In this document: positions 19,332 to 25,739 of the stretch, in pieces
Numbering within the stretch: position 1 is the stretch's first letter
Layout of the letters: each line of letters starts with the position of its first letter
NCBI RefSeq assembly: GCF_900095795.1
Contig: NZ_LT608328.1
Coordinates: forward strand, 1,977,001-2,041,000
Length of the DNA: 64,000 nt
Direction of reading: 5' to 3'
DNA from: Petrimonas mucosa
GTDB lineage: Bacteria; Bacteroidota; Bacteroidia; Bacteroidales; Dysgonomonadaceae
Translations under genes and position numbers: made by a program
The notes under the pieces: model-generated
Seen by the model: only the letters and a program-made list of their open reading frames with translations
Databases searched by the model: none
Told to the model about the DNA's origin: nothing

Positions 19332-22300
19332 TTAATTGATCGTAAAATTTAATCCAACGTTAAACACTCGTTGAATTGGGTATCCCAATCCTTCTCCGGC
19401 CATTTCTACATCCCATAATTTAAACTTGCTCCATGTCAATAAATTAGTTCCACTTAGGTAGAGCCTTAGATTTCCGATATGCCATTTTTTTTGCCAATTG
19501 CCGGGAATGGTATATCCGATTTCAGCTTGTTTCAACCGAAGAAAAGAGCCGTCTCTCATGAACCATGTGCTTGTCTGCACATTATTCAGATTAGTATTCG
19601 GCGAGAGTCTCGGCCAAGTTGCATACATATTCTGATTTTCTTCTGACCAATGGCTATCGGCATAAGCCTGTAATATTTGTGTCTGATTTTGAAAGGGGGA
19701 TGTGCCCGCAGCATTGATCCAGAAAGACTCGTTCGCCGATCCCTGGAAAAAGAGGGAGAAATCAAGGCCTTTATAGCCTAACGATATTCCAAACCCATAG
19801 ACAATTTCAGGTACAGTCGGGTATCCGATTGGCACTTTATCTGCCTCTGTAATCCTTCCGTCTCTGTTTACATCTGTATATTTTATATCTCCTCCTCCAT
19901 AGACTGAGCCGAATTCCTGATAGGGCGAGTTCTCTGCCTCGATATCGTCCATAAATAATCTTTCAGCAATATAACCATACATCTGGTTCAATGATTGTCC
20001 TACTCTTGATCGCCATGGCTCATTGTATTGAGGTTCTTCGAACACTTCATATTGACTGGTAGCGTAGGTGAAATTTCCCCGGGCCGATGTCCAGAAATCT
20101 TTATTCCATGATTGCTGGTATTCTAACGAAATATCAATTCCTTTACCAGACGCTTCTCCTACATTCGCACGTATAGGAGCTGTGAGTCCCATTGTAGTGG
20201 GGATCGCCTCGCGATTCATTAAGATGTTCTTGCGGTATTCCGTGAAATACTCGGCGATAATGTTAATCTTATCGTATAAGCCAAGTTCCAGCGCATAATT
20301 GCTCTTTATGGATGTTTCCCAGCCAATATCCGGGTTCGAATACCGTGATATGGAAATTCCCGGTAAAGACTTGTCCACATTGGTGCCAAAAGTTGCACCA
20401 TAGTAACTGTTATTCATATTTACATTGGAGAGATAGAAGAAACGATCCCTTGAAGAACCTATCTGGTCGTTTCCTACCAAACCATAGCTGTATCTTAGTT
20501 TCAGGTTCGATACGATCGGTTTTATAGGTTCCCAGAAATTTTCATTGGAAACAACCCATGCCGCACCCGCTGAAGGGAAGAACCCGAAACGTTTTTCTTT
20601 GGAGAATCTCTCCGATCCATTGTATCCGAAATTAAATTCCGTAAAAAAACGGTTATCGTAAGAATAGGTCAATCTTCCCGACAGGCCCACGTTGCGTGAG
20701 GGTAGTGATAACTGGATATCTCCGGCATTTGCCTTGCTTTGCTCCCGTAACATATAGACCAAAAGCCCGCTGACATTATGTTTTTTGTTAAAAGTACGTT
20801 GGTAATTTATGGTTCCCTCCAAGTACATGATACTGGTTATGTCTTTACTCCCTTCTGAATAGTTCAAGTATTCTGTGCCGTTATCATTCGTCTGTATTAA
20901 CTGGTATTTTTCACTTACCCGGTCATAACTGCCTATTTGATAATAATAGGGATTATAAAACCTGCGGACATCATATTTGGAAACTCTTGTTATGTTCATT
21001 AATCCTTTCACGGACAGACCTTCCGTCAGGAAGTTCAAGTCTTGTTTCAACTCCAGATGCGCCATCATTTGGGATCTTTTTTCCTCCCGGTATCCTCTTA
21101 CCATTTCTGCATACGGATTGGTATATGAGTGGTCGTAATTGCCGAACATAATATGGTTTACATACTTGTGTTCTTCATCTACGGGGTAATAAGCCGGGAA
21201 AAGTACCGGGTTGGCATGCATTACCATATTATACATTTCCTTTCCGGTATAAATAGGGCCGGAGTAATCGTCAAAGTTACCGTTGAGCTGTACAATCATT
21301 TTCGTTGTTTTTGTCAGGTCGATATTGATATTACTGCGCAACGTATAGATCTCCGATTTAATATTATTGTTGAAATTATTCCTTTTGTCTACATTTAAAA
21401 TACCATTATCTATGCTATATGATCCAGCCACATAATACCGGGCAACACCCCCACCTCCGCTGACATTAAGGTTTACCCTCTGATTGGCAGTATAATCCTT
21501 AAATAACATGTCTTTCCATCTGATCGCCGGATAAATAAGCGGATTCATCCCTGCTGCCGTGTTTTCTATTTTTTCTTCACTATAAGGTAATTCACCCAGC
21601 GGGTCACGGGTAAGAACCGCTTCATTATGGAGTCTCATATAAGTTACCGGATCGGCAATTTTTATATTGGAGGTTGGCTGAGAGATTGAGTTTTCGATAC
21701 GCGCCGATATTTTAGCAGGACCCTCTTTCCCCTGCTTTGTTGTAACTAAAATTACCCCATTTGCCCCTCTTGCACCATATAGTGCTGTGGCCGTTGCATC
21801 TTTCATCACAGAGAAGCTCGCAATGTCGTCAGGCTGTAATCTTGCCAGGTCTGTTTTCGTGAGCTCTATTCCATCAATCAATATTAAAGGGTTCTTATTC
21901 TCCCCGAATGTTGTAATACCCCTGACAAAGAAATCGGCATTATCTTGTCCGGGTTCTCCACTTCTCTGGTACGAAATGATACCAGCCATCCTTCCTGCCA
22001 GGGAAGTGGTTAAATTACTGGATGGTACTTTAAGTTCTGATGGATTAATAGTCGCAACAGATCCGATTACACTTTCTTTCTTTTGTACACCAAAGGCAAC
22101 CACCGTCACTTCATCAAGGCCGACCGTTTCTTCCAATAACTTTACGGAAATAACTCTTTTATTTCCAACCGTGATTTCCTGTGTTGTATATCCGATAAAG
22201 CTGAATTGCAGTACACATGTGTCGTTCGGTACGGAAATGGAATACTCGCCGTTCACATCCGTGGTAGTTCCTTGTGTGCTACCCTTGATCATAATGGTTA

Positions 22301-22739
22301 CCCCGGGTAAAGGGTCATCCATATTGTCCGATACCGTACCGGTGATACGGATATCCCGTTGAGCAGGAGATTGTACTAATTTGGCTTTTTTAGAGATCGC
22401 GATCTGTCGGTCCGAAATCATGTATTTCAGATCGGTTGACGCAAACAATCTATCGAGAATAATGCGTATATTTTCATTCTTCGCATTGATGGATACTTTT
22501 TTATTTAGATCCAGTGCATCTTCGTAAATAAAAATAAATTCACTGTTTTTCTCAATCTCATTCAATATATCTCTCATACTTTTATCTTCAAGATGGATAG
22601 ATAAGAGGGTAGATTGCGAGTAACTGTTCAAGGCATAGCTGAGATTTAATCCCAGAATTAGAAAAATAAAGGTAAATTTCATCCTTATCAAAAATGGATT
22701 TTTTTGATGTAATTTCTTATAAATGTAGTACATTTGCAT
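19332..22739 (-). CDS. SusC/RagA family TonB-dependent transporter with N-terminal STN signalling domain
   Basis: This outer-membrane importer has 1135 residues from the ATG at 22739; the signal peptide proper begins at Met20 (22682). In order there is an STN secretin/TonB N-terminal domain at about 41-118, a CarboxypepD_reg-like domain at about 127-215 (GTVSDNMDDPLPGVTIMIKG), a plug (VSVVAFGVQKKESVIGSVAT-like segment, then GANGVILVTTKQGKEG) and a beta-barrel ending GLNFTIN. The STN domain implies direct trans-envelope signalling to the FecR/ECF-sigma pair encoded upstream. An antisense RNA is predicted against its leader, and IS1595 sits 93 bases upstream. Confidence 0.93.
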   Translation of the reverse strand: MQMYYIYKKLHQKNPFLIRMKFTFIFLILGLNLSYALNSYSQSTLLSIHLEDKSMRDILNEIEKNSEFIFIYEDALDLNKKVSINAKNENIRIILDRLFASTDLKYMISDRQIAISKKAKLVQSPAQRDIRITGTVSDNMDDPLPGVTIMIKGSTQGTTTDVNGEYSISVPNDTCVLQFSFIGYTTQEITVGNKRVISVKLLEETVGLDEVTVVAFGVQKKESVIGSVATINPSELKVPSSNLTTSLAGRMAGIISYQRSGEPGQDNADFFVRGITTFGENKNPLILIDGIELTKTDLARLQPDDIASFSVMKDATATALYGARGANGVILVTTKQGKEGPAKISARIENSISQPTSNIKIADPVTYMRLHNEAVLTRDPLGELPYSEEKIENTAAGMNPLIYPAIRWKDMLFKDYTANQRVNLNVSGGGGVARYYVAGSYSIDNGILNVDKRNNFNNNIKSEIYTLRSNINIDLTKTTKMIVQLNGNFDDYSGPIYTGKEMYNMVMHANPVLFPAYYPVDEEHKYVNHIMFGNYDHSYTNPYAEMVRGYREEKRSQMMAHLELKQDLNFLTEGLSVKGLMNITRVSKYDVRRFYNPYYYQIGSYDRVSEKYQLIQTNDNGTEYLNYSEGSKDITSIMYLEGTINYQRTFNKKHNVSGLLVYMLREQSKANAGDIQLSLPSRNVGLSGRLTYSYDNRFFTEFNFGYNGSERFSKEKRFGFFPSAGAAWVVSNENFWEPIKPIVSNLKLRYSYGLVGNDQIGSSRDRFFYLSNVNMNNSYYGATFGTNVDKSLPGISISRYSNPDIGWETSIKSNYALELGLYDKINIIAEYFTEYRKNILMNREAIPTTMGLTAPIRANVGEASGKGIDISLEYQQSWNKDFWTSARGNFTYATSQYEVFEEPQYNEPWRSRVGQSLNQMYGYIAERLFMDDIEAENSPYQEFGSVYGGGDIKYTDVNRDGRITEADKVPIGYPTVPEIVYGFGISLGYKGLDFSLFFQGSANESFWINAAGTSPFQNQTQILQAYADSHWSEENQNMYATWPRLSPNTNLNNVQTSTWFMRDGSFLRLKQAEIGYTIPGNWQKKWHIGNLRLYLSGTNLLTWSKFKLWDVEMAGEGLGYPIQRVFNVGLNFTIN
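22703..22736 (+). promoter_or_regulatory. consensus Bacteroides-type promoter, antisense to susC
   Basis: TTTG at 22703-22706 and TACATTTG (perfect TAnnTTTG) at 22729-22736 are separated by 22 bases on the plus strand. This is the strand opposite susC. Initiation is expected at about 22742. The -7 box lies directly next to the complement of the susC start codon. Confidence 0.65.
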
Positions 22740-22741
22740 TA

Positions 22742-22821
22742 AGTTCTTAATTAGTTATTGAAGTGACTTGTTAATTACTTGTCAGTGGCCTGATAGTGCA
22801 ATATCAGGTCACTCTTTTTTT
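22742..22821 (+). ncRNA. predicted cis-antisense small RNA over the susC leader (DonS-like)
   Basis: The RNA of about 80 nucleotides would start after the promoter at 22703-22736 and end at an intrinsic terminator. The terminator has arms AGTGGCCTGATA and TATCAGGTCACT (22784-22795 and 22802-22813, one G-U pair), a 6-base loop, then C and seven T (22815-22821). It is fully complementary to the susC mRNA leader including the ribosome-binding region. Position (between anti-sigma gene and susC), strand and size match the DonS family of sRNAs that repress glycan-uptake operons in Bacteroides. No coding potential is seen. Confidence 0.65.
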
Positions 22822-22831
22822 AATTTACTTT

Positions 22832-23916
22832 AATGATTATCCGCAGTTATTCCTAAAGAATTTAACGGGAAAAAGTTATAAATAAGTTTCAAAAACACTT
22901 GCACAATTCACTGATATTCATTATATTTACATCGCTAACGATATAAAGATTCAAACTATGAATATCCTGGATTTTGCTATAAATTACCCCGATGAGGAAT
23001 CCTGTCGGAAAAAATTCAAAGAACAAAGAGACCAAATGGGAGTAACCTGTCGTCATTGTAATTGTAAAGAACATTATTGGCTGGAAAACAAGCAGGCCTA
23101 TGAATGCAAGCGTTGTCGCGCACGCCAAACCTTGCGTTCAGGCACCGTCATGCAGCACTCCAACCTGCCTTACCGTTACTGGTTCGTGGCCATGCACCTG
23201 CTCACGGCGACCAAGGGCTCCTTTTCCGCGGCGGAGCTGCAGCGCCAGCTGGGGCACAAGCGTTACCAGCCCATATGGGAAATGGTCAATAAACTGCGTG
23301 ACGTGATGGGCAAACGCGATGATGAGTACACCCTCGAGGGAGCCATCGAGTTGGACGACGCCTTCTTTTCCACCGAAATATCCCTTGAAGAGAGGGACAA
23401 ACCGTTGAAGCGCGGCCGCGGGAGCCAAAAAAAGACCAAAGTGCTGGTAATGGCTGAAAGCAAAACGGTTGAAAACCCCAAGCCGGGTAAGAAACCCAAG
23501 AAGGTTAGATACCTGAAAATGAAAGTGATCAGTGACTTGAAGTCCGGTACAATTACAAGGAATGTCAAAGAGCACGTTGAAAGCACGGCGGATCTGACCA
23601 CCGATGACTCAACATCTTACACTAAATTGAAAGAGCATGTTCATTCACATACGGCATCTGTTATTCCACACCAGGATCTTTCCAAGGTGCTGCCCTGGGT
23701 GCATACCGCGATCAGCAATGCCAAACGACAGCTCCTGGGCGTGTATTACAAGATAAAACCAGAATACTTGCAATATTACCTCAACCAGTTCTGTTATAAA
23801 TTCAACAGGCGTTACTTCGGGGAAAACCAGTTTGAAAGACTGTTGATAGCCGCTGTAACGTATGCTCCTGATTTCAAGTCAAGAATTTACAATAGGAACT
23901 ATTGCGGATAATCATT
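22832..23916 (+). mobile_element. IS1595-family insertion sequence, complete
   Basis: Inverted ends start AATGATTATCCGCA at 22832 and its complement at 23903-23916, with further imperfect pairing inward. The 8-base target duplication TTTACTTT is at 22824-22831 and 23917-23924. The element is 1085 bases long and carries a single transposase gene. Without it, fecR and susC would be only about 104 bases apart. Confidence 0.93.
22958..23911 (+). CDS. IS1595-family (ISXO2-like) transposase
   Basis: The 317-residue transposase has an N-terminal zinc ribbon (CRHCNCKEHYW, then YECKRCRARQTLRSGT) and an ISXO2-like DDE domain with AIELDDAFF, TTDDSTSYTKL and WVHTAISNAKRQLLGVYYKI, in which an Asn-containing variant of the third motif is seen. 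The C-terminal YLQYYLNQFCYKFNRRYF is typical. Its central part is much richer in GC than the surrounding PUL genes. The gene ends 5 bases inside the IS end. Confidence 0.92.
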   Translation: MNILDFAINYPDEESCRKKFKEQRDQMGVTCRHCNCKEHYWLENKQAYECKRCRARQTLRSGTVMQHSNLPYRYWFVAMHLLTATKGSFSAAELQRQLGHKRYQPIWEMVNKLRDVMGKRDDEYTLEGAIELDDAFFSTEISLEERDKPLKRGRGSQKKTKVLVMAESKTVENPKPGKKPKKVRYLKMKVISDLKSGTITRNVKEHVESTADLTTDDSTSYTKLKEHVHSHTASVIPHQDLSKVLPWVHTAISNAKRQLLGVYYKIKPEYLQYYLNQFCYKFNRRYFGENQFERLLIAAVTYAPDFKSRIYNRNYCG

Positions 23917-23936
23917 TTTACTTTTTCCATAGGCAT

Positions 23937-25136
23937 TCAGGGTTTAAAAGTTACAGAATATATGTCGTTCTCTCGCGTGTAGTCTATAGGGACGATATAT
24001 TGTAGAATGTTCAATACGTCATTTAAACTCTCCTTTAAATCCAGTTTTCCCTTACATCTTAATCCTGCTGCTTGTTTATCTACAATAATTTCTTTCCCGT
24101 AATATCTGGAGAGACGGGTAAGAATAAAGTCTAATCTTTCGCTGTCGCAGATATATATTCCATCAATCCAGGAAATATAGTTGTATACGGTAACCGGTTT
24201 GATCGTTACGTTTGATTTGGTTGCTTCATACATCTCAGCCGGTTTCAGTATAAATTCTTCTTTGGATGAATCCGAAGAGATTTTAACAGATCCCGATTGT
24301 AGTATTACCCGTTTTTGCCTGTCTGCATGATAAGCTTGCACATTAAACCGGGTTCCCAGAACCCGTACATTCATATCGCCGGTCTGCACAATGAACGGCC
24401 TGTCATGATCCGGTTGAACGTCAATATAGATCTCTCCATCTACGAATATTTCCCTTTTGTCGTCTGCGAACAGTGACGGATATACTAATCTTGTGCCGGA
24501 ATTGACCCATATTTGCGTGCCATCCGACAGCGTCAGGAAAGATCGTTTTCCCTTTGGGATAATCAGTTGATTAAAATCGGCTATTTCATTTTTTGAAATT
24601 TCATGCTGTACCGTTTCCTGTGATGCAGTTTTTGAAGAGACCCTTACAGAAGCCGAATCATATTGTATAACCGATTCCGTTTCTTTCAAAGATACGATTT
24701 TATTGTCCGAAACGAATAGTTGTGTTTCAGTTGTTTCAACAACCGGTATATGGTTATAGGCAAACTCCCTTATCCCTTTTTCGTTGTCGTTTTTCTCCGT
24801 TAACTGAAAGTTGAAGTAAAACAATAAAGCGATACCTGCGGCAACCGCTGAACTGATGACAAGATAAAGTCTTTTCAACTTTGTCCGTCGATATTGATTG
24901 GAAGCTTGAATATGATTCCATATGGTATGCATATCTTCCGTATCCAGTAAATCCTTATTTAAATCCTGGATGCATCTGACTGCTTTATTGTATTCTTTAT
25001 TTTCTTTTCGATATTTCTCCCAAAACCGTGCTGATTCTTCTGTAGGGTTTAAAACGGACTGTATAAAAAAATCGTCCTGAAGAAAATCTTCAAAGGTAAA
25101 ATCTTTGTAATCTTTATTCTGTTTGTCGATTTCCAT
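23937..25136 (-). CDS. FecR-family anti-sigma factor
   Basis: This 399-residue inner-membrane regulator has a cytoplasmic N-terminal segment (1-87), one transmembrane helix at about 88-107 (LYLVISSAVAAGIALLFYF), a periplasmic FecR domain (IIPKGKRSFLTLSDGTQIWV, then FIVQTGDMNVRVLGTRFNVQ), and a C-terminal DUF4974 domain. It holds the neighbouring ECF sigma factor inactive until the SusC STN domain reports substrate. The sigma gene ends 42 bases upstream. Confidence 0.93.
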   Translation of the reverse strand: MEIDKQNKDYKDFTFEDFLQDDFFIQSVLNPTEESARFWEKYRKENKEYNKAVRCIQDLNKDLLDTEDMHTIWNHIQASNQYRRTKLKRLYLVISSAVAAGIALLFYFNFQLTEKNDNEKGIREFAYNHIPVVETTETQLFVSDNKIVSLKETESVIQYDSASVRVSSKTASQETVQHEISKNEIADFNQLIIPKGKRSFLTLSDGTQIWVNSGTRLVYPSLFADDKREIFVDGEIYIDVQPDHDRPFIVQTGDMNVRVLGTRFNVQAYHADRQKRVILQSGSVKISSDSSKEEFILKPAEMYEATKSNVTIKPVTVYNYISWIDGIYICDSERLDFILTRLSRYYGKEIIVDKQAAGLRCKGKLDLKESLNDVLNILQYIVPIDYTRENDIYSVTFKP

Positions 25137-25178: not shown

Positions 25179-25739
25179 TTAATCACTTTTTGAATAAAAT
25201 TTTTTTATTTTTTTCAGGGCTCGATAGATAATGTTTGCAACAGACTGATAATCCATATTTTGTCGTTCTGCAATTTCGGTCAACGAAAGTCCTTCCACAT
25301 ATCTGTAATAGACAATCTCTTTTTGTCGGGCTGTGATGATCGACCAGATATTGTCGACAACCGCCTTTTGTGCTATTTCTTCTTCGGAACTTATTATCTT
25401 GTCAATTACTGTATCCTTATCTGTCCAATCATCTTCATCGATAGAATTTTTAAACTTGTTATATGAGTTTTGCTTCCGGAAAGCCATTAGGATGGAATTT
25501 TTTAACGCTGAAGTCAGGTATCGCCTGATATTGCTGGTCGCTCCGAGATTCTTCCTGTTTTCGTATATATGTACAAAAATGTCTTGGATACAATCTTTCA
25601 CCAGATCTTGATGATCCGTTAAAGTGAGGCCATAGGTAAAAAGTGTCTGCGCATGTTTCTTGTATATGAATTCATATGCACGATCATTGCCTGCAAGAAA
25701 TTCATTCCATATAAAAGCGTCGTTCTCAGTATTATACAT
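25179..25739 (-). CDS. RNA polymerase ECF-type sigma factor
   Basis: This 186-residue sigma-70-family factor of the Bacteroidota FecI-like group has region 2 around residues 20-90 (FIYKKHAQTLFTYGLTL, then CIQDIFVHIYENRK) and region 4 at about 130-180 (ITARQKEIVYYRYVEGLSLTEIAERQNM). It would direct transcription of the susC operon when released by FecR. IS1380 ends 42 bases upstream of its start codon. Confidence 0.93.
   Translation of the reverse strand: MYNTENDAFIWNEFLAGNDRAYEFIYKKHAQTLFTYGLTLTDHQDLVKDCIQDIFVHIYENRKNLGATSNIRRYLTSALKNSILMAFRKQNSYNKFKNSIDEDDWTDKDTVIDKIISSEEEIAQKAVVDNIWSIITARQKEIVYYRYVEGLSLTEIAERQNMDYQSVANIIYRALKKIKKFYSKSD

What the first reader, a model, noticed from the sequence alone, without database searches (positions are those of the whole stretch)
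22703..22821. Predicted antisense small RNA over the susC leader, resembling DonS
Seen: a TTTG-22-TACATTTG promoter on the strand opposite susC, placed next to its start codon, then about 80 bases later a 12-base hairpin with seven T. Known: in Bacteroides, cis-encoded sRNAs such as DonS lie between anti-sigma and susC genes and repress the PUL. Inference: this PUL has the same layer of control, with the sRNA covering the whole ribosome-binding region of susC.
Basis: partly seen in the sequence, partly recalled or inferred. Interest (0 to 1): 0.75.

Follow-up and report, generated by a model that had tools for sequence, protein, structure and literature searches.

The report
Antisense RNA gene over susC leader
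A sugar-uptake gene in this bacterium appears to carry, on the opposite DNA strand across its start, a small gene for a regulatory RNA of about 80 letters; relatives of it recur in other Bacteroidia, so it is a well-supported new member of a known class of RNA switches.

Summary
Confirmed: plus-strand TTTG-22-TACATTTG, a 12-bp hairpin and T7, outside the IS1595, antisense to the leader of a FecR-linked susC. Of 355 TAnnTTTG boxes in 464 kb of this genome, 2 precede such a terminator, this one included. An IS-free ortholog keeps both. Of 97 family FecR loci with a downstream ORF, 58 carry the -7 box across the start codon in one register, against 1 of 368 control ORFs. Of 54 such leaders, 49 have an antisense terminator; 3.2 expected. 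Base pairs covary, and G.U pairs and T-runs mark the antisense strand as the RNA. A covariance model finds the layout in B. fragilis and other Bacteroidia. Best reading: a DonS-type cis-antisense sRNA gene. Against: paralogs mostly lack a -33 box, and 39 of 97 loci lack the exact -7 box. Expression and repression were not tested, and donS itself was not compared. Extras: a conserved 1-6-codon mini-ORF in these leaders, interrupted here by the IS, and orphan RNA copies without susC.

The parts
22703..22706 (+). -33-like TTTG of the antisense promoter (22-base spacer); not conserved in paralogs
   Evidence: present in ortholog G088 at the same spacing; sense CAAA at spacings 19-22 in 1 of 55 paralogs
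22729..22736 (+). -7 box TACATTTG of the antisense promoter, lying across the susC start codon
   Evidence: identical in G088; such a box at the start of 58 of 97 FecR loci vs 1 of 368 control ORFs, in a register 4 bases different from the window's
22742..22821 (+). predicted antisense small RNA, about 80 nt (5' end predicted from the box, not mapped)
   Evidence: the window element is among the 47 used to build the model and is hit by it
22784..22821 (+). intrinsic terminator of the antisense RNA: 12-bp stem, 6-nt loop, C, T7
   Evidence: covariation over 47 aligned elements; strand test
22731..22733 (-). probable susC start codon (conserved in G088), inside the antisense -7 box; ATG at 22739 is not conserved
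19332..22733 (-). susC-like TonB-dependent receptor with STN domain, the presumed target
   Evidence: Pfam
23928..23934 (-). GCCTATG: start of the conserved leader mini-ORF, just after the FecR stop; interrupted downstream by the IS
22832..23916 (+). IS1595-family element (inverted repeats; TSD TTTACTTT at 22824-22831 and 23917-23924), between the mini-ORF start and the sRNA terminator
   Evidence: absent in G088
23937..25136 (-). FecR-type anti-sigma factor
   Evidence: Pfam
25179..25739 (-). sigma factor with sigma-70 regions 2 and 4 (ECF type by size, inferred)
   Evidence: Pfam

Best explanation
It is a gene for a cis-antisense small RNA of about 80 nt. It is read from a primary-sigma (TAnnTTTG) promoter whose -7 box lies across the susC start codon, and it ends at an intrinsic terminator in the susC leader. 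SHOWN by sequence: the layout, its recurrence at FecR-linked genes, covariation of the hairpin, and that the antisense strand is the RNA strand under selection. INFERRED: it is transcribed here; it pairs perfectly with the susC mRNA leader from about -9 to -88 and blocks ribosome entry and/or exposes the mRNA to cleavage, adding a brake to sigma/anti-sigma control. Antisense polymerases starting on the susC start codon may also interfere with susC transcription. In this strain the IS1595 leaves the sRNA gene whole but separates it and susC from the FecR-side part of the leader.
For: Observation and chance. IS-free ortholog: 22701-22760 98% identical, hairpin stretch 22761-22820 85%, CDS stretch 669 of 882 positions. 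Box register 58 of 97 vs 1 of 368. Antisense terminator in 49 of 54 leaders vs 3.2 shuffled; 1 on the sense strand vs 0.2. Covariation: 123 double-change cells vs 37.3 in shuffles (0 of 500), score 0.745 vs 0.355. Strand test scored symmetrically: 66 of 84 leaders with a strong hairpin vs 1.7 shuffled; 128 G.U on the antisense vs 16 on the sense strand; T-run 44 vs 1. Own genome: 7 model hits at E<=0.1, all next to one of its 12 FecR matches. Receptors without a listed FecR: box 2 of 22, antisense terminator 0 of 22; FecR-linked ones in the same sample: 3 of 6 and 4 of 6. B. fragilis: 6 hits, all on the start codon of an ORF next to a FecR match. Published asRNAs of this layout are seen by RNA-seq, some by Northern, in B. 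thetaiotaomicron (PMC7366714, PMC10994844, passages).
Against: The -33 TTTG at 19-22 is not enriched in paralogs (1 of 55), so promoter evidence rests on the -7 box; PMC7366714 notes that a -33 motif was not found in Flavobacterium johnsoniae either (passage). The window box sits in another register to the ATG than most. 39 of 97 loci lack the exact box, and 5 of 54 box leaders lack the terminator. The aligned elements were chosen for having a hairpin, so their percentage paired is inflated and the shuffle comparison is partly built in; one measure, pairs with a change on both sides (11), was reached by 19 of 500 shuffles. PMC10994844 reports positive as well as negative asRNA/PUL correlations. 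I saw no transcript data for this strain. The loci are the closest FecR matches and are related, so counts are not independent.
Confidence: 0.82

Rival explanations
1. The conserved sequence acts in the susC mRNA itself (translation-start motif CAAANNTATG plus a leader hairpin); no antisense RNA is made.
For: Bacteroidota mRNAs favour A at -3, -6 and -11 to -15 (PMC7366714, passage), which fits part of the motif; the sense strand also folds (z -3.54).
Against: G.U pairs 128 vs 16 and T-runs 44 vs 1 favour the antisense strand; the motif is rare at other starts (1 of 368 control ORFs), so a general A-rich start signal does not explain it.
Confidence: 0.08
2. The RNA is made but works mainly by transcriptional interference: antisense polymerases collide with susC transcription; pairing is secondary.
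For: The box lies on the start codon in a fixed register in 58 of 97 loci, so initiating polymerase would sit in the path of susC transcription.
Against: Three orphan copies away from susC keep the RNA body almost unchanged, so the RNA itself appears to matter in at least that subfamily.
Confidence: 0.2
3. The hairpin is only a terminator that keeps antisense transcription out of fecR, with no regulatory RNA.
For: Only the hairpin and T-run are strictly needed for that.
Against: The stem starts 40-60 nt after a -7 box in 44 of 49 leaders, and the body between is conserved in the ortholog and in one Bacteroides subfamily; a bare terminator needs neither.
Confidence: 0.07
4. The element came with, or serves, the IS1595.
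For: Its T-run ends 2 bases before the target-site duplication.
Against: It lies outside the duplication and is present without the IS in G088.
Confidence: 0.01

Closest known systems
DonS and PUL-associated cis-antisense RNAs of Bacteroides (Cao et al. 2016, not held; described in passages of PMC7366714, PMC10994844, PMC11697453)
   Same: Antisense to a susC homolog of a PUL, short RNA (78-128 nt per PMC7366714); here also a primary-sigma box and an intrinsic terminator. The covariance model built from this family finds 6 loci in B. fragilis.
   Different: Outside Bacteroides, in a PUL with a GH127 gene, with an IS1595 inserted beside it and no expression data; sequence identity with donS itself not tested.
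FopS / GibS sRNAs of B. thetaiotaomicron (PMC11697453, PMC7366714, passages)
   Same: Small RNAs that act near translation starts; FopS repress susC translation, have primary-sigma promoters and a terminator hairpin.
   Different: FopS bind several targets through a shared 5' seed; here the RNA is fully complementary to its own leader. Seed and RbpB binding not tested.
CopA/tap/repA of plasmid R1 and IstR-1/tisB (recalled)
   Same: Antisense RNA against a leader that also holds a mini-ORF or ribosome standby site.
   Different: Not compared by sequence; here the mini-ORF lies upstream of, not inside, the antisense target.

Membership tests
DonS-type PUL-associated cis-antisense RNA | encoded opposite to a susC homolog, at its 5' end | tested here: met
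   (with an IS1595 also inserted there)
DonS-type PUL-associated cis-antisense RNA | length 78-128 nt (PMC7366714, passage) | tested here: met
   predicted about 80 nt; both ends predicted, not mapped
DonS-type PUL-associated cis-antisense RNA | primary-sigma promoter TTTG ... TAnnTTTG | tested here: met
   both boxes exact, spacing 22; -33 box not enriched in paralogs
DonS-type PUL-associated cis-antisense RNA | homologous loci in B. fragilis, the species of DonS | tested here: met
   6 model hits; of 24 FecR loci with a downstream ORF 13 have the box and 13 a strong hairpin, 11 both
DonS-type PUL-associated cis-antisense RNA | sequence homology with donS itself | not tested
   paper not held; donS not identified among the B. 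fragilis loci
DonS-type PUL-associated cis-antisense RNA | expression and repression of the PUL | not testable with these tools
   needs RNA work
FopS family | match to an Rfam family (PMC11697453 says FopS was deposited in Rfam) | tested here: inconclusive
   no Rfam match at gathering score for the window, 10 loci or 5 B. fragilis regions; whether FopS is in this copy was not checked

The most novel reading that the evidence does not exclude
In Bacteroidia, FecR-linked susC genes share a three-part leader: a 1-6-codon mini-ORF just after the FecR stop, the target of a dedicated antisense RNA, and a start codon built into that RNA's promoter. Ribosome traffic on the mini-ORF and the antisense RNA jointly set susC translation, a CopA/tap-like double control that my searches did not find in print, and some of these RNAs have broken free as orphans that may act in trans.
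Probability: 0.35. Interest if true: 0.8.

Novelty: new member of a known kind. Interest (0 to 1): 0.55.

Why it matters
PUL-associated antisense RNAs have been described in Bacteroides, with the mechanism of DonS called unknown (PMC11697453, passage). This work gives a covariance model for a family found in Bacteroidia beyond Bacteroides, with no Rfam match in the scans made. It also gives a recurrent overlap of antisense promoter and start codon in one register, and a conserved mini-ORF in the same leaders. These make the mechanism directly testable by changes in a single box.

Tried and rejected
Rfam scans of the window, 10 loci and 5 B. fragilis regions gave no match at gathering score; scans to high E-values of the window leader and of one orphan copy gave only matches below gathering score. 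A search of plasmids with the leader gave nothing. The idea that GCCTATG is only a sigma promoter element was not pursued: the in-frame stops after its ATG (48 of 60, against 18 and 18 in the other frames) point to translation, though a promoter role at the same place is not excluded. An attempt to identify the Don PUL among the B. fragilis hits by Pfam, on 10 proteins, failed. Paper searches for a susC leader mini-ORF or for the start-codon overlap showed nothing on them in the listings (the paper passages neither); absence from print is claimed only for these, and Cao et al. 2016, which might describe the overlap, is not held.

Controls that were weak: the first receptor control (box 2 of 23, hairpin with T-run 0 of 23) would have passed only 1 of its 6 FecR-linked receptors and took a wrong start for the window gene; it was redone with the scan.

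Rows dropped: of 101 FecR loci, 4 had no downstream ORF. The other 97 were not checked for being receptors, and some are not (L010 is the IS transposase; L054, L055 and L058 look like lipoproteins by eye). Of 58 box loci, 55 were unique and 54 had a gap of 40-300 nt. Of the 49 with a terminator, L120 and L127 were left out as too long, and L083 and L114 by hand; with the window and G088 the alignment holds 47. Stem starts outside 40-60 nt: L083, L114, L118, L120, L127. The independent mini-ORF set took 26 of the 30 model hits found outside the family; L187, L188, L195 and L320 were left out as broken or orphan, and L194 fell out for want of an upstream ORF.

Full report
WHAT IS THERE. The window is bases 1977001-2041000 of a 3.72-Mb single-contig genome. 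On the minus strand run a sigma factor (25179-25739), a FecR anti-sigma factor (23937-25136), then susC (19332-22733/22739), susD, DUF4959, DUF4998 and GH127 genes. An IS1595-family element (22832-23916, transposase on +, TSD TTTACTTT) lies between fecR and susC.

CHANCE. The hairpin alone is not rare by a loose scan (1 found, 1.9 expected in a 2.1-kb region). The pair is: in 464 kb of this genome (20 stretches of 20 kb plus the window), 355 TAnnTTTG boxes on both strands include 2 followed by a terminator of score 20 or more ending 45-105 nt later, one being this site.

THE IS-FREE ORTHOLOG. A DNA search of 101 genomes of the family found one long match to the element outside the own genome, G088 (86% over query bases 15-272). 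It has no IS there. The stretch 22701-22760 is 98% identical and the hairpin stretch 22761-22820 85%; 60-base stretches of the susC coding region are 63-93% (669 of 882 positions over 21801-22682). The -7 box and the spacer are unchanged. The stem keeps 12 of 12 pairs on the plus strand although three bases differ, and its T-run is broken by one A (my reading).

OTHER FecR LOCI OF THE FAMILY. A search with this FecR found matches in 98 of the 101 genomes. I took 101 FecR loci (11, 30, 60; the closest ones, not a random draw). 97 had a downstream ORF, not all of them receptors. In 58 of 97 the sense sequence CAAANNTATG stands at an in-frame start: the antisense -7 box TAnnTTTG lies across the start codon in one register. 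1 of 368 control ORFs of 150 aa or more has it, spurious ORFs included; of those of 300 aa or more, 1 of 209. The window box overlaps its ATG 4 bases off that register. The -33 box is not enriched at 19-22 bases, 1 of 55. In 54 unique box leaders of suitable length, 49 have an antisense hairpin with T-run, 3.2 expected in dinucleotide shuffles; the sense strand gives 1, 0.2 expected. In 44 of 49 the stem starts 40-60 nt after the box and in 45 of 49 it ends at 69-92, so most RNAs would be about 70-95 nt.

STRAND AND STRUCTURE. On 47 aligned elements, 96.5% of stem cells pair (79.3% in shuffles), 123 cells are double changes against 37.3 in shuffles (0 of 500), 11 of 12 pairs show a change on both sides (reached by 19 of 500 shuffles), and slid structures fall to 31-50% paired. 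These elements were chosen for having a hairpin, so part of this is built in; the weight lies on the 49 of 54. Since that scan tolerated G.U on one strand only, I repeated it with G.U and A.C scored alike and no T-run asked: 66 of 84 leaders have a strong hairpin (1.7 in mononucleotide shuffles), with 128 G.U on the antisense against 16 on the sense strand, and T-runs 44 against 1. A few of these best hairpins are not the element. The antisense RNA is what appears to be selected.

SPECIFICITY AND SPREAD. A covariance model gives 7 hits at E<=0.1 in the own genome, all next to one of its 12 FecR matches; 5 of 7 have the box exactly on the ATG, the window is 4 bases off and one has no such box. 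Among 30 receptor loci in hand of 56 listed, 28 could be used: of 22 without a listed FecR, 2 have the box and none the antisense terminator; of 6 with FecR, 3 and 4. In 247 genomes of the order 17 have a hit at E<=1e-3, a cut at which the own genome shows 4 of its 7. Of the 20 hits outside the own genome (2 in the same family), 17 lie exactly on the ATG of a long ORF with a receptor-like N terminus, judged by eye. L187 has the box and ATG but a broken frame; L188 and L195 are orphans. In 296 genomes of the phylum 6 have hits; 3 belong to the class but not the order, all with FecR upstream (Pfam) and the box on an ATG. In seven named Bacteroidaceae genomes the model gives 12 hits in 5 (B. fragilis 6, B. 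salyersiae 2, B. luti 2, B. finegoldii 1, B. stercorirosoris 1, none in two Phocaeicola); 10 of 12 lie on the start codon of a downstream ORF, and the 6 of B. fragilis are each next to a FecR match. Of 24 B. fragilis FecR loci with a downstream ORF, 13 have the box (C or T first), 13 a strong hairpin (9 with T-run), 11 both.

MECHANISM. The promoter would start RNA near 22742, 9 nt upstream of ATG 22733, so the RNA pairs with the susC leader from about -9 to -88 and leaves the start codon free. A duplex there should still keep the 30S subunit off. This is inference. Published work supports the class: DonS is described as one of a family of 78-128-nt antisense RNAs that lower susC expression; ten DonS-like RNAs and later 32 PUL asRNAs are reported in B. 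thetaiotaomicron, five of the ten confirmed by Northern (PMC7366714, PMC10994844; passages). Later work calls the DonS mechanism unknown (PMC11697453, passage), and both negative and positive correlations are reported (PMC10994844, passage).

THE MINI-ORF. Just after the FecR stop many leaders hold GC[CT]TATG: 65 unique ones among the 101 loci, 60 after thinning. In 48 of 60 the ATG meets an in-frame stop after at most 5 further codons, against 18 and 18 in the other frames and 22.4 +- 3.7 (maximum 36 of 2000) when the following bases are shuffled. In a set outside the family, 21 of 25 loci have an ATG with a stop within 5 codons between the end of the upstream ORF (taken as FecR) and the RNA terminator; shuffles give 6.7 +- 2.1, none of 1000 reaching 21; by frame 26, 14 and 8 of 40 ATGs. 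So a mini-ORF of 1-6 codons looks like a conserved part of these leaders. In the window the IS lies inside it; G088 has it whole (MEKVR). Its function is unknown to me; ribosome loading or coupling is a guess.

ORPHANS. In B. finegoldii (its only hit) and in G263 a near-identical copy of a B. fragilis cis element lies after a PNPase gene, without susC; a third orphan is in G158. The RNA body is kept while the bases between box and body vary. This hints at copies acting in trans.

VERDICT. An antisense RNA gene by strong sequence evidence, a new member of the DonS-type class. Function in this strain is untested and may be altered by the IS.

Noticed in passing
window 23928-23934 (-) and FecR-susC leaders of the family, the order and B. 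fragilis: Conserved mini-ORF of 1-6 codons (often GCCTATG...stop) between the FecR stop and the antisense terminator: 48 of 60 family loci with the motif, 21 of 25 loci outside the family.
   Followed up: partly
L320 (B. finegoldii) and L195 (G263), 1501-1596; L188 (G158): Orphan copies of the antisense RNA, without susC; two lie after a PNPase gene, with the RNA body nearly identical to cis copies. Possible trans-acting sRNAs.
   Followed up: partly
window 22832-23916; L166: 20 IS1595-family copies matched in the genome; at least two lie between fecR and susC just after the mini-ORF start, in the window and at L166. The gene context of the other 18 was not examined.
   Followed up: partly
L012 / L176 (G000 1050039-1052385): A third FecR-susC leader of this genome is split by an inserted transposase-like ORF (by eye, not scanned with Pfam); the antisense element stays with susC.
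   Followed up: no
B. fragilis leaders such as L340, L341, L342, L357: A TAACCTT(T)AAAA stretch about 20-25 nt upstream of the mini-ORF ATG recurs (by eye); candidate ECF sigma -35 element, not tested.
   Followed up: no
L386 (G000 3090838): A receptor without a listed FecR still has the start-codon box but no antisense terminator.
   Followed up: no
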